Shown here: positions 51,716 to 55,290 of the stretch, piece by piece | Numbering within the stretch: the first letter of the stretch is position 1 | Layout of the letters: each line of letters starts with the position of its first letter | Translations under genes and position numbers: made by a program | The notes under the pieces: generated by a model | Database searches by the model: none | Seen by the model: the letters and a program-made list of their open reading frames with translations, nothing else | What the model was told of the DNA's origin: nothing | Origin: an uncultured bacterium | GTDB taxonomy: Bacteria; Elusimicrobiota; Elusimicrobia; Elusimicrobiales; Elusimicrobiaceae | NCBI GenBank assembly: GCA_949291515.1 | Contig: CASEVY010000007.1 | Coordinates: forward strand, 248,001 to 312,000 | Reading direction: 5' to 3' | Length of the DNA stretch: 64,000 nucleotides

Positions 51716-53413
51716 ATGAAAGACAAAAATCACGGCGTAGTGGTCGCGCCCGGCGCGGGTTTCTGCCCCGGGGTAAAGAAAGCGATAGACTGCGTATTGC
51801 ATTTGGAAGCCGCGGGCAAAAAGCCGATATATACCATCGGGCCGCTTATACACAATAAGCAGGTTACGGATATGCTTGCGGAGAAGGGAATAACTTCGAT
51901 AGACGAGCTTTCGCAGGCCAAAGACAAGAACGGCGTTCTTGTGATACGCGCGCACGGCATTACGCCGGAATTTCAGGCGGAGGTGCAGTCTCAGGGTATG
52001 GAAGTGGTGGATTCCACCTGCCCTTTGGTAAAGAAAGTGCATAACGTTATAGACGAATACGCCAAGCAGGGCTACTATACCGTAATAGTGGGCGACGGCG
52101 GCCACGCGGAAGTTATAGGTCTTTTGGGCTATACGCGGGGCAAGGGCTATGTGATAGCCAATGCCGATGAAGCCAAAAATCTGCCGCATTTCGACAAAGT
52201 AAATATAGTATCGCAAACCACTCAGAAGGAAGAAACGTTTTTCAAAGCGGCCGAAGCGGTAAAAGCCAAGGCCGACATATGCCAAATCAACAATACGATA
52301 TGCCAGCCGACCAAACAGCGCCAAAAGGAAACATTGGAGCTTGCCAAGAACGCCGATTTGGTAATAGTTGTAGGCGGACGGCACAGCGCCAATACGGCGC
52401 GGCTGGCCAAACTGTGCGGGGAGCTTTGCCCCAAAGTAATACACGTGGAAAGCGAGGAAGAAATCCGCAGGGAGGACGTCCTTTCGCCAAGCAATATTTT
52501 TATAACTGCCGGCGCGTCCACGCCGAACTGGGTTATAGACAATGTGGCGGGCCGGGTAAAGAATTACAGGAAGGAGGCTTCCTCTTTCTTGGGGGTGCTT
52601 GGCAGAATATGGGATTTTATAGTCAAGAGTTCCATTTTTACGGCATTGGCTGCGGCGTGTCTGACTTATGTCTGTATGAAACTTTCCGGCGCCAATAACG
52701 ATTTAAAGCTTTATTTGCTTTCCGCGTTTTTTATTTTTACTTTGACTTTCGCCAACAAAACGCCGCAGGATATGCCCTCGAAGATAAAGAAGCGTTTTCT
52801 TACGCCGATAGTATTGGGCGGTTTGACTGCTTTTTTGGTCTCGCTTAATTACGGCGCCGGGGTATGGCTGCCCACTTTGGTGTTTTTGATTTTGGGCGCG
52901 GCTGCTTATCCGTTTAGGAACAGGATAAATTTTCTTTCCCGTTTACCCGGCACGAAGGATATAGTTACGGCTTTAGGTTGGTGTTTCGTATGCGTATACG
53001 TACCGGCGGCGAGCCAAGGCCTTTTGATGAGCAAATCGGCCTGGCTGGCATTTAGCTACGGTCTTTTGCTGGTATTTATCCGTTCGGTAATACTCAGCAT
53101 CGGCTCGGCCAACAAAGATATGATGTTGGGCAAGGAAAGTTTTTACAAAGCATTCGGCATTAACGCCACAAAGACGGCCATCGGCCTGATAATAGCGGCC
53201 TTGACCGCGGTGCTTATCCAGCTTTTGATAATGGGCTGGAAGAGCGGGATAGTTTTTATGCTGCTTTTGGGGCAAATTTATACAATAGTAATAGCGGTAT
53301 GTTTTTACAGTAAAAAGACTCCGCGCACAACGGCGAGCGAAACTTTTATAGACGGCCAGTTTTTCGTTTTGGCATTATTGACGTATGCGGCGGTTCGGTT
53401 TTTAAAATTTTAA
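51716..53413 (+). CDS. ispH: IspH fused to a UbiA-like membrane domain
   Basis: 565 residues, about twice the usual IspH. The N-terminal part (1-280) is a complete 4-hydroxy-3-methylbut-2-enyl diphosphate reductase. The cluster Cys are C17, C102 and C196, the substrate His are H46, H80 and H130, and Glu132 lies in HAEV. It makes isopentenyl and dimethylallyl diphosphate. The C-terminal part (about 290-565) has eight or nine membrane helices. FANKTPQDMPSKIKKR (345-360) and SANKDMMLGKESFYKAFG (464-481) sit where UbiA prenyltransferases have their Asp-rich motifs, but most Asp are missing. No Shine-Dalgarno; TAGAAT ends six bases before the ATG. Confidence 0.88.
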   Translation: MKDKNHGVVVAPGAGFCPGVKKAIDCVLHLEAAGKKPIYTIGPLIHNKQVTDMLAEKGITSIDELSQAKDKNGVLVIRAHGITPEFQAEVQSQGMEVVDSTCPLVKKVHNVIDEYAKQGYYTVIVGDGGHAEVIGLLGYTRGKGYVIANADEAKNLPHFDKVNIVSQTTQKEETFFKAAEAVKAKADICQINNTICQPTKQRQKETLELAKNADLVIVVGGRHSANTARLAKLCGELCPKVIHVESEEEIRREDVLSPSNIFITAGASTPNWVIDNVAGRVKNYRKEASSFLGVLGRIWDFIVKSSIFTALAAACLTYVCMKLSGANNDLKLYLLSAFFIFTLTFANKTPQDMPSKIKKRFLTPIVLGGLTAFLVSLNYGAGVWLPTLVFLILGAAAYPFRNRINFLSRLPGTKDIVTALGWCFVCVYVPAASQGLLMSKSAWLAFSYGLLLVFIRSVILSIGSANKDMMLGKESFYKAFGINATKTAIGLIIAALTAVLIQLLIMGWKSGIVFMLLLGQIYTIVIAVCFYSKKTPRTTASETFIDGQFFVLALLTYAAVRFLKF

Positions 53414-53428
53414 GGAGTGGCAAATAAT

Positions 53429-54544
53429 ATGAAAGTAAGAAGAATAGGCGTTTTAACTGCCGGCGGCGATTGCCCCGGTCTTAACGCCGTAGTGAGAGGC
53501 GTAGCCAAGCACGCGCTTAACTGCGGCATAGAGGTATTGGGTTTTAAAAACGGTTTTGACGGTTTGGTAAAGAACCAGTTTATAGAGCTCGACAGCAAGA
53601 CGGTATCTGGCATACTTACGCGCGGCGGAACGATACTGGGCACCAGCAATTTGGCTAATCCTTTTAATTATACTTTAGCGCCTATGGGCTCGCCGGAAGA
53701 GCCCAAAGACGTTTCTTCGCTGGTGCTGCATACGATAAAGACGAACAAGGTGGACGCTTTGGTGACGATAGGCGGCGACGGGACTCTTTCTATGTCGCAG
53801 AAGTTTATAGAGATGGGCGTACCGATAGTGGGGGTGCCCAAGACTATCGATAATGACCTTTCGGCTACGGATTTTACTTTCGGTTTTGATTCGGCCTTGA
53901 GCGTCGCGACGGACGCGGTAGACAGAATACACACCACCGCCGAATCGCATCACCGCGTTATGATATTGGAAACTATGGGCCGCTACGCGGGGTGGATAGC
54001 TTTGCGTTCCTGTATAGCGGGCGGCGGAGACATCTGCTTAATTCCGGAGATACCTTACTCCGATGACGCTATCATAGAGGCAATAGAGGACAGACAGCGC
54101 AAAGGCAAAACTTTCAGCATAATAGTCGCGGCGGAAGGCGCGGTAAACGAGCAGGGCGAAATGGCCGTAAAAGCCAAGATAGCGGGCTCTACCGACCCGA
54201 TAAGGTTAGGCGGCATAAGCAGCAAAATAGCCGCTATGATAGAAGAACGTCTTAAAGTGGAATGCAGAGTGGTCGTGCTCGGCCACTTGCAGCGCGGCGG
54301 CACGCCTACGGCTTTTGACCGCTGGCTTTCCACCAGATTCGGCACCGAAGCGGTGGAGCTTATCTTGCAGGGCAAGACGGGCTATATGGTAGCTTTAAGA
54401 GGAACGGAAATAATAAGCGTGCCGGTAAAAGACGCGGTATCCAAACTGAAGAGAGTCGATCCGAACGGAGAGGAAGTTCGCGCGGCTTTGGCCGTCGGGA
54501 CGAGTTTCGGTTCAAGCAAAATCGGCGGAGCGTGCGGCGTATAA
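53429..54544 (+). CDS. 6-phosphofructokinase
   Basis: Phosphorylates fructose-6-phosphate, the committing step of glycolysis. The 371-residue protein has GGDCPGLNAVVRG near 12-24, TIGGDGTLSMSQ at 113-124 and GVPKTIDNDL at 135-144, then MGRYAGWIAL near 182. Gly in GGDG favours ATP as donor (PPi enzymes have GGDD), while Lys in PKTIDND is common to PPi and some ATP (group III) enzymes. The donor thus remains open. The start at ATG 53429 is behind AAGGAG; a GTG at 53417 is also in frame. It overlaps rlmB in the pattern TAATG. Confidence 0.93.
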   Translation: MKVRRIGVLTAGGDCPGLNAVVRGVAKHALNCGIEVLGFKNGFDGLVKNQFIELDSKTVSGILTRGGTILGTSNLANPFNYTLAPMGSPEEPKDVSSLVLHTIKTNKVDALVTIGGDGTLSMSQKFIEMGVPIVGVPKTIDNDLSATDFTFGFDSALSVATDAVDRIHTTAESHHRVMILETMGRYAGWIALRSCIAGGGDICLIPEIPYSDDAIIEAIEDRQRKGKTFSIIVAAEGAVNEQGEMAVKAKIAGSTDPIRLGGISSKIAAMIEERLKVECRVVVLGHLQRGGTPTAFDRWLSTRFGTEAVELILQGKTGYMVALRGTEIISVPVKDAVSKLKRVDPNGEEVRAALAVGTSFGSSKIGGACGV

Positions 54545-55290
54545 TGGAAAGAATAGACAAGGAACAGCTGATCTTCGGCATACACCCCATAAGGGAAGCG
54601 CTTAAAGGCAGAAAGCGCCAGATAATCCAACTCTATATCGTAGAGAACAAAAAGCAGAGCAAGGCGGTTGAAGACGTTATCCGCCTTGCCAAGACCAATA
54701 ACGTAAAGATAAAGAGTATGGAAGAACGCCTTATGAACAATTTGGCGGGCGGAGCCAATCATCAAGGCGTGATAGCGCGGGCGGAGCCTTTAAAACTTAT
54801 GCGCCTGACCAACGCTTTATACGAAAGTTCGGGCAACAAGAAGGATCTGTGGCTGGCTATTGACGAGGTTACCGATCCCCAAAATTTGGGTTCGATGTTA
54901 AGAAGCGCGGCCTGTCTGGGGTTCAGTACGGTGATATTGCCCCAGCGCAGAAGCGTCGGTATAACGGGCACTGTGCATAAAGTGGCGTGCGGCGCTTTGG
55001 AAACTTTGCGGATTGTGGAAGTCACCAATCTGACTACCGCTCTGCTGGACTTAAAAGACGAAGGCTTTTGGATTTATGGCGCGGATATGGCGGGCAAGAG
55101 CATAAAAGAGATGGATTATGCTTATCCCGCGGTATTGGTTATCGGTTCGGAAGGTACGGGGCTGAGGCTTAAGACCAAGGAACATTGCGACGAAGTTATC
55201 AGCATACCGCAGCAGGGCGGCGTGAGCAGTTTAAACGCCGCGGCGGCGGGCGCGATAATAATGTATGATATGTTCTCCAAGATAAAATAG
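54544..55290 (+). CDS. rlmB: 23S rRNA 2'-O-methyltransferase, RlmB-type (SpoU family)
   Basis: 248 residues. The N-terminal substrate-binding domain opens with FGIHPIREALKG. The SPOUT methyltransferase domain carries motif 1 (DEVTDPQNLGSMLRSAACLG near 107-126), motif 2 (VIGSEGTGLRLKTKE) and motif 3 (IPQQGGVSSLNAAAAGAI), which form the trefoil-knot SAM site. Closest to RlmB, which methylates G2251 in 23S rRNA. Its start overlaps the pfk stop codon; an in-frame start at 54532 is less likely. A bidirectional terminator follows. Confidence 0.93.
   Translation: MERIDKEQLIFGIHPIREALKGRKRQIIQLYIVENKKQSKAVEDVIRLAKTNNVKIKSMEERLMNNLAGGANHQGVIARAEPLKLMRLTNALYESSGNKKDLWLAIDEVTDPQNLGSMLRSAACLGFSTVILPQRRSVGITGTVHKVACGALETLRIVEVTNLTTALLDLKDEGFWIYGADMAGKSIKEMDYAYPAVLVIGSEGTGLRLKTKEHCDEVISIPQQGGVSSLNAAAAGAIIMYDMFSKIK

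What the first reader, a model, noticed from the sequence alone, without database searches (positions are those of the whole stretch)
51716..53413. IspH fused to a UbiA-like polytopic domain with degenerate Asp motifs
Seen: residues 1-280 are a complete IspH with all cluster Cys; residues ~290-565 are a membrane domain. Two segments (345-360 and 464-481) stand where UbiA prenyltransferases have their NDxxD and DxxxD motifs, but most Asp are replaced. Known: IspH fusions exist (for example to S1 domains), but a membrane UbiA-like fusion is unfamiliar to me. Inference: the fusion may place IspH at the membrane, channel IPP/DMAPP, or sense prenyl diphosphates.
Basis: partly seen in the sequence, partly recalled or inferred. 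Interest (0 to 1): 0.7.

Follow-up and report, generated by a model that had tools for sequence, protein, structure and literature searches.

The report
IspH fused to Asp-poor UbiA-fold domain
A gut-type Elusimicrobiota bacterium makes the last enzyme of bacterial isoprenoid synthesis (IspH) as one protein with a nine-helix membrane domain of the UbiA prenyltransferase fold; such fusions were published in 2015 for sulfate reducers, but here the domain has lost most of the metal-binding aspartates and kept a different conserved set of residues, so its job is open.

Summary
ORF 51716-53413 is one intact 565-aa gene: a complete IspH (residues 8-283) plus a membrane domain. Sequence alone gives a sub-threshold UbiA match, but a model of the domain (pTM 0.80) matches UbiA structures over about 240 residues (Z 14-15). 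It is no frameshift or assembly error: the domain recurs in 93 of 341 genomes of the phylum, fused to IspH. The fusion type is not new: Rao et al. 2015 (PMC4746011) described 47 IspH-UbiA proteins, mainly in Desulfobacterales, and reported DXXXD motifs there. What is added here: in 45 Elusimicrobiota fusions the NDxxD motif reads N-[R/K/H]-x-x-[mostly E; Q in the window], the first Asp of motif 2 is always lost and its last Asp always kept. Conserved residues line the cytosolic side, where IspH sits. The domain is under purifying selection, yet was lost cleanly several times, leaving IspH-pfkA. The window's family has almost no other UbiA enzyme and one polyprenyl synthase, so quinone making is unlikely. 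Most likely it tethers IspH to the membrane and binds an isoprenoid ligand, with weak, altered or no transferase activity. This is a new variant of a known kind.

The parts
51716..53413 (+). ispH-ubiA-like fusion gene, 565 aa, ATG to TAA
   Evidence: same-length orthologues in independent assemblies
51737..52564 (+). IspH domain, residues 8-283, with C17, C102, C196 and other active-site residues
   Evidence: Pfam LYTB 1.3e-85; 3dnf 1e-58; residue alignment
52565..52609 (+). linker, residues 284-298, poorly conserved; IspH-only relatives stop near residue 290
52610..53410 (+). UbiA-fold membrane domain, residues 299-565, nine TM helices
   Evidence: PF01040 sub-threshold, 22-25 bits against 34.2; model pTM 0.80; Z 15.3 to 4tq4, 14.9 to 4od5
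52754..52768 (+). place of NDxxD motif 1: N347 K T P Q351
   Evidence: N 45/45, next residue R/K/H 45/45, position 351 acidic in 32/45 but Q here
52907..52909 (+). Y398, end of TM4, place of the conserved UbiA Tyr (Y139 of AfUbiA, by inference)
   Evidence: Y in 43/45; role of Y139 from PMC4106721
52955..52984 (+). K414-D415-x-x-T-A-L-G421-W422 segment at start of TM5
   Evidence: K/R 45/45, D/E 45/45, G421 and W422 45/45
53081..53119 (+). R456-S457 to motif 2 place S464xxxD468
   Evidence: R456 and D468 45/45; position 464 never acidic
53129..53158 (+). G472-K-E474-x-F-Y-K478-A-x-G481 cytosolic segment after motif 2
   Evidence: E474, Y477, K478, G481 at 96% of 45
53339..53362 (+). E542-x-x-x-D546-x-Q-F549 at loop 8-9 and TM9
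   Evidence: E/D 45/45 at 542 and 546; F549 45/45
53417..54544 (+). 6-phosphofructokinase-like gene (named by sequence only), next gene in fused and IspH-only relatives of the same family
54532..55290 (+). RNA 2'-O-methyltransferase (rlmB-like, named by sequence only), conserved in the same order

Best explanation
It is a membrane-tethered IspH. The N-terminal part is a working 4Fe-4S HMBPP reductase that makes IPP and DMAPP (inferred from intact residues). The C-terminal part has the UbiA fold (shown by model comparison) and holds IspH on the cytosolic face of the membrane (inferred from topology). Its pocket keeps the motif-1 Asn, the TM4 Tyr and the last motif-2 Asp, but has a basic residue where motif 1 has its first Asp and no acid at the first motif-2 position. 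I think it binds an isoprenoid or lipid (di)phosphate there, supplying or adjusting IspH locally, and that canonical Mg-dependent prenyl transfer is weak, altered or absent, above all in the window's genus, where the second Mg ligand (D72 of AfUbiA) is mostly Gln or Ser.
For: UbiA fold: top seven VIA rows are UbiA-family chains, Z 13.6-15.3, 238-246 residues aligned; Foldseek ranks UbiA first with probability 1.00. Intact IspH. No clear stand-alone copy in the phylum: matches in 93 of 341 genomes lie in IspH-fused ORFs, apart from pieces of one gene split between contigs in G053 and a shorter ORF near a contig end in G108. N347, G421, W422, P430, R456, D468, F549 are invariant in 45 sequences; columns at or above 90% are 18% of cytosolic-loop positions, 10% of TM and 0% of periplasmic, which speaks for a cytosolic-side site and not a mere anchor. 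dN/dS of the domain 0.06-0.17. In AfUbiA the N68A and D72A changes abolish GPP binding while D198A and D202A only weaken it (PMC4106721); here D72's place is Q and D198's is S.
Against: No ligand, activity or location was measured. 32 of 45 relatives keep an acid (mostly Glu) at the D72 place, so Mg binding may persist in them. The domain was lost several times in the same family, so whatever it does is dispensable. The structure model rests on seven sequences and is poor around motif 2 (pLDDT about 40). hhalign of the domain profile against the MenA-type UbiA profile of the same phylum found no significant match.
Confidence: 0.45

Rival explanations
1. The domain is an active prenyltransferase with an altered metal site, using DMAPP/IPP-derived donors made next door by IspH (the Rosetta-stone reading of Rao et al.). 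N347, E351, D415, D468, E474, D546 rebuild the Mg site and R348, K414, R456 bind the phosphates.
For: UbiA fold; N68-equivalent Asn and D202-equivalent Asp in 45/45, Tyr in 43/45, acid at the D72 place in 32/45; Rao et al. favour prenyltransferase activity.
Against: First motif-1 Asp is basic in 45/45 and first motif-2 Asp is lost in 45/45; the window itself lacks the D72 acid; its family shows no quinone route: no other UbiA over the cut-off except one partial hit in G015, and one polyprenyl synthase per genome against usually two in the sister family.
Confidence: 0.28
2. The domain is a sensor: prenyl diphosphate bound in its pocket changes IspH activity, a bacterial parallel to UBIAD1, a UbiA protein that binds HMG-CoA reductase and senses GGPP.
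For: UBIAD1 in the HMGCR complex is among the closest folds (8djk, Z 13.6); UBIAD1 acts as a GGPP sensor on an isoprenoid-pathway enzyme (PMC4374513, PMC9314443); consistent fusion to IspH; conserved pocket without the full catalytic motif.
Against: Analogy only; UBIAD1 keeps its Asp motifs and acts through protein degradation; no tested effect on IspH; repeated losses.
Confidence: 0.15
3. The domain is only a membrane anchor without a ligand site.
For: The Asp motifs are mostly gone; the domain is dispensable in several lineages; in the window's genus it evolves faster than IspH.
Against: Charged and polar residues in the cytosolic half are invariant over proteins down to 37% identity, and conservation is highest on that side; an anchor would not need them.
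Confidence: 0.1
4. Artefact: two genes joined by a frameshift, or a chance similarity of a transporter to UbiA.
For: The Pfam UbiA score is below its cut-off (22.3 against 34.2 bits).
Against: Same ORF in dozens of independent assemblies; UbiA structures stand at the top of the fold search over the whole domain.
Confidence: 0.02

Closest known systems
IspH-UbiA fusion proteins of sulfate-reducing bacteria (Rao et al. 2015, PMC4746011; UbiA part classed PT_UbiA_5)
   Same: IspH at the N-terminus, UbiA-like nine-helix domain at the C-terminus, in anaerobes
   Different: Reported there with two DXXXD motifs; here motif 1 has N-[R/K/H]-x-x-[E/Q/S] and motif 2 lacks its first Asp. Elusimicrobiota are not named in the paper's main text.
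UbiA prenyltransferases AfUbiA (4tq3-4tq6) and ApUbiA (4od4, 4od5)
   Same: Fold and topology, Z 14-15; motif-1 Asn and last motif-2 Asp
   Different: Most Mg-binding Asp of motif 1 and the first Asp of motif 2 are absent; fused to IspH
UBIAD1 bound to HMG-CoA reductase (8djk)
   Same: A UbiA-fold protein physically tied to an isoprenoid-pathway enzyme; fold Z 13.6
   Different: Separate polypeptide, vitamin K2 synthase with intact motifs, different pathway enzyme (mevalonate route)
IspH-RPS1 fusions (PRK00087)
   Same: IspH at the N-terminus of a two-part protein; the best NCBIfam score of the IspH part is to this model
   Different: Partner is ribosomal protein S1 repeats, soluble

Membership tests
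IspH (LytB, PF02401) | Whole-domain match and three cluster cysteines | tested here: met
   1.3e-85 over positions 1-266 of 267; C17, C102, C196 aligned with solved IspH
IspH (LytB, PF02401) | HMBPP reductase activity with a 4Fe-4S cluster | not testable with these tools
   needs purified protein
UbiA superfamily (fold) | Nine-helix UbiA fold with cytosolic loops 2-3 and 6-7 | tested here: met
   Z 15.3 to 4tq4, 244 residues, rmsd 4.2; Foldseek probability 1.00
UbiA superfamily (fold) | Pfam PF01040 gathering score | tested here: not met
   22.3 bits (full protein) to 24.7 (domain), cut-off 34.2; 11 of 20 domains match at E up to 0.1
UbiA prenyltransferase (enzyme) | NDxxDxxxD first motif | tested here: not met
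   N 45/45, first D never, D72 place acidic in 32/45 (Q in the window), D76 place acidic in 1/45
UbiA prenyltransferase (enzyme) | DxxxD second motif | tested here: not met
   first D 0/45, last D 45/45
UbiA prenyltransferase (enzyme) | Mg-dependent prenyl transfer | not testable with these tools
   needs an assay
IspH-UbiA fusion class of Rao et al. 2015 | UbiA-like domain fused to the C-terminus of IspH | tested here: met
IspH-UbiA fusion class of Rao et al. 2015 | Two DXXXD motifs | tested here: not met
   paper's statement
IspH-UbiA fusion class of Rao et al. 2015 | Common descent with the Desulfobacterales fusions | not tested
   no Desulfobacterota chromosome could be reached

The most novel reading that the evidence does not exclude
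The Asp-poor UbiA domain is no longer an enzyme but a built-in prenyl-diphosphate sensor that sets IspH activity at the membrane, a bacterial counterpart of UBIAD1 and HMG-CoA reductase.
Probability: 0.13. Interest if true: 0.75.

Novelty: new variant of a known kind. Interest (0 to 1): 0.36.

Why it matters
IspH-UbiA fusions have had no assigned function since 2015, because the published proteins did not express well in full length. Elusimicrobiota offer a useful comparison: a large set of fusions with a conserved but non-canonical pocket, next to close relatives that lost the domain at the same locus. That makes the role of the domain testable by comparison. If the domain senses isoprenoids, it would be an unexpected form of feedback in the MEP pathway.

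Tried and rejected
Frameshift or assembly join: rejected. Chance similarity to another transporter family: rejected by fold search. Fusion unique to this genome: rejected. Quinone prenyltransferase in the window's family: unlikely. Profile-profile comparison with MenA-type UbiA proteins of the same phylum gave no significant match, and an hmmsearch of the domain profile against PDB sequences gave only weak unrelated hits; both are uninformative for a domain this divergent. Long IspH frames in other families (G184, G192, G208, G211, G217 and others) were fetched to look for other fusions: the two read to their end (G211, G217) stop soon after IspH, the rest were not resolved by the simple pattern used, and G131 is a further divergent IspH-UbiA. 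Plasmid search found only ordinary IspH. Reaching Desulfobacterota genomes through a plasmid locus was not accepted as a centre, so their motifs are quoted from the paper and not checked. The Elusimicrobium minutum genome paper is not in the library.

Full report
Observation. The ORF at 51716-53413 is one open frame of 565 codons with ATG start and TAA stop. Residues 8-283 are a full IspH: Pfam LYTB 1.3e-85, Aquifex IspH 3dnf 1e-58. In the alignments with Aquifex and E. coli IspH the cluster cysteines C17, C102, C196 and the residues H46, H80, H130, E132, T168, S224, N226 and S268 are present (their roles in E. coli IspH from general knowledge). It is the only IspH of the genome.

What the C-terminal domain is. 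Sequence search gives a sub-threshold UbiA match (22.3 bits for the full protein, 24.7 for the domain, cut-off 34.2), seen at the same place in many orthologues. A model of the domain alone (pTM 0.80, mean pLDDT 75, from seven sequences) puts UbiA structures first: 4tq4 Z 15.3, 4od5 14.9, 4od4 14.8, and UBIAD1 from the HMGCR complex 13.6. Foldseek agrees with probability 1.00, also with the full-length model, where UbiA chains come right after IspH chains. Helical bundles give middling Z easily, and soluble prenyl synthases follow at about 12.6, but UbiA entries fill the top of the list over nearly the whole domain. The loop around motif 2 is modelled poorly. Positive charges lie on the loops that face the same side as IspH (15 against 2).

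The motifs. By sequence alignment and topology I place the window's residues on the AfUbiA numbering: N68 = N347, D69 = K348, D72 = Q351, D198 = S464, D202 = D468. This mapping is inferred, not read from a superposition. In 45 distinct fusions N68 is kept 45/45, D69 is basic 45/45, D72 is acidic 32/45 (31 Glu), D76 is acidic 1/45, D198 is acidic 0/45, D202 is kept 45/45. In AfUbiA N68 and D72 with D198 and D202 coordinate two Mg; N68A and D72A are among four changes that abolish GPP binding, D198A and D202A raise KD 45- and 21-fold (PMC4106721). So the canonical site is lost in part everywhere, and most in the window's genus and its neighbour g2. Against this, N347, G421, W422, P430, R456, D468 and F549 are invariant and K414, D415, E474, Y477, K478, E542, D546 nearly so. 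This is an old, conserved alternative, not recent decay. dN/dS for the domain is 0.06-0.17. In the window's genus it is about 2 to 7 times that of the IspH part, elsewhere about equal, which hints at weaker constraint there; synonymous sites are near saturation in several pairs, so this is rough.

Distribution. A profile of the domain finds 93 of 341 genomes of the phylum, and matches lie in IspH-fused ORFs; the exceptions are one gene split between two contigs (G053) and a shorter ORF near a contig end (G108). G131 holds a further divergent fusion. The fusion is typical of the window's order (families f1 and f2), plus four genomes of families f14 and f15, one of which (G185) also has a second, shorter IspH. 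In the IspH tree these four join G021 of f1 (support 98/86), which suggests transfer. Nineteen IspH-only proteins sit inside the fused set in a way that needs 6 changes on the tree, at least 5 forced by well-supported branches. In f1 the gene after IspH is the same phosphofructokinase gene in fused and most IspH-only loci, often directly adjacent, and no domain remnant is found downstream. So the domain was most likely removed cleanly from the same gene several times; loss is the simpler reading, though direction was not tested formally.

Context. The sister family f2 usually has a canonical UbiA/MenA-type enzyme and two polyprenyl synthases; f1 has one polyprenyl synthase, and over the UbiA cut-off only a partial hit in G015. 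A role in quinone synthesis is therefore unlikely in f1. G018, which carries the fusion (L014), is a single contig of 1,643,562 bases; from memory this is the size of the closed Elusimicrobium minutum Pei191 genome, so a cultured carrier may exist, but this was not verified.

Prior work. Rao et al. 2015 (PMC4746011) found 47 IspH-UbiA fusions, mainly in Desulfobacterales, with two DXXXD motifs, and proposed membrane localisation, local supply of IPP/DMAPP, or sensing; expression of full-length protein failed. No paper found here treats the Elusimicrobiota fusions, within an open-access library only.

Mechanism. Shown: fused gene, intact IspH residues, UbiA fold by prediction, motif replacement, conserved cytosolic-side residues, purifying selection, repeated presence-absence changes at one locus. 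Inferred: IspH activity, membrane location, ligand binding. My first choice is a tethered IspH whose UbiA-fold domain binds an isoprenoid or lipid phosphate without ordinary Mg-dependent transfer; an altered but active prenyltransferase is the main rival, and a sensor like UBIAD1 (GGPP sensor for HMG-CoA reductase; PMC4374513, PMC9314443) is the most novel reading left open.

Noticed in passing
L118 (G185:C73) and L145 (G185:C87): One genome of family f14 holds both a fused IspH-UbiA-like gene and a second IspH in a shorter frame; with G189, G229 and G232 it suggests that the fused gene moved between families.
   Followed up: partly
L061:167-2022 (G015:C116): A canonical UbiA protein (IINDIFDADIDRR) lies directly next to a gene whose protein starts like a HAD phosphatase (TINVYDFDGTIYEGDSS) in an IspH-only genome of the window's genus; possible contamination or a lipid-linked-sugar route.
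   Followed up: no
G047:C43:33894-38307: Three polyprenyl synthase matches and one UbiA match lie together within about 4.5 kb, a possible isoprenoid gene cluster.
   Followed up: no
G020 and G024: The two of 60 relatives with no polyprenyl synthase match are both IspH-only genomes of the window's family; could be chance or incompleteness.
   Followed up: no
window:51009-51689: A protein resembling DNA alkylation repair (HEAT-repeat) proteins lies just upstream of the fusion in the closest relatives only.
   Followed up: no
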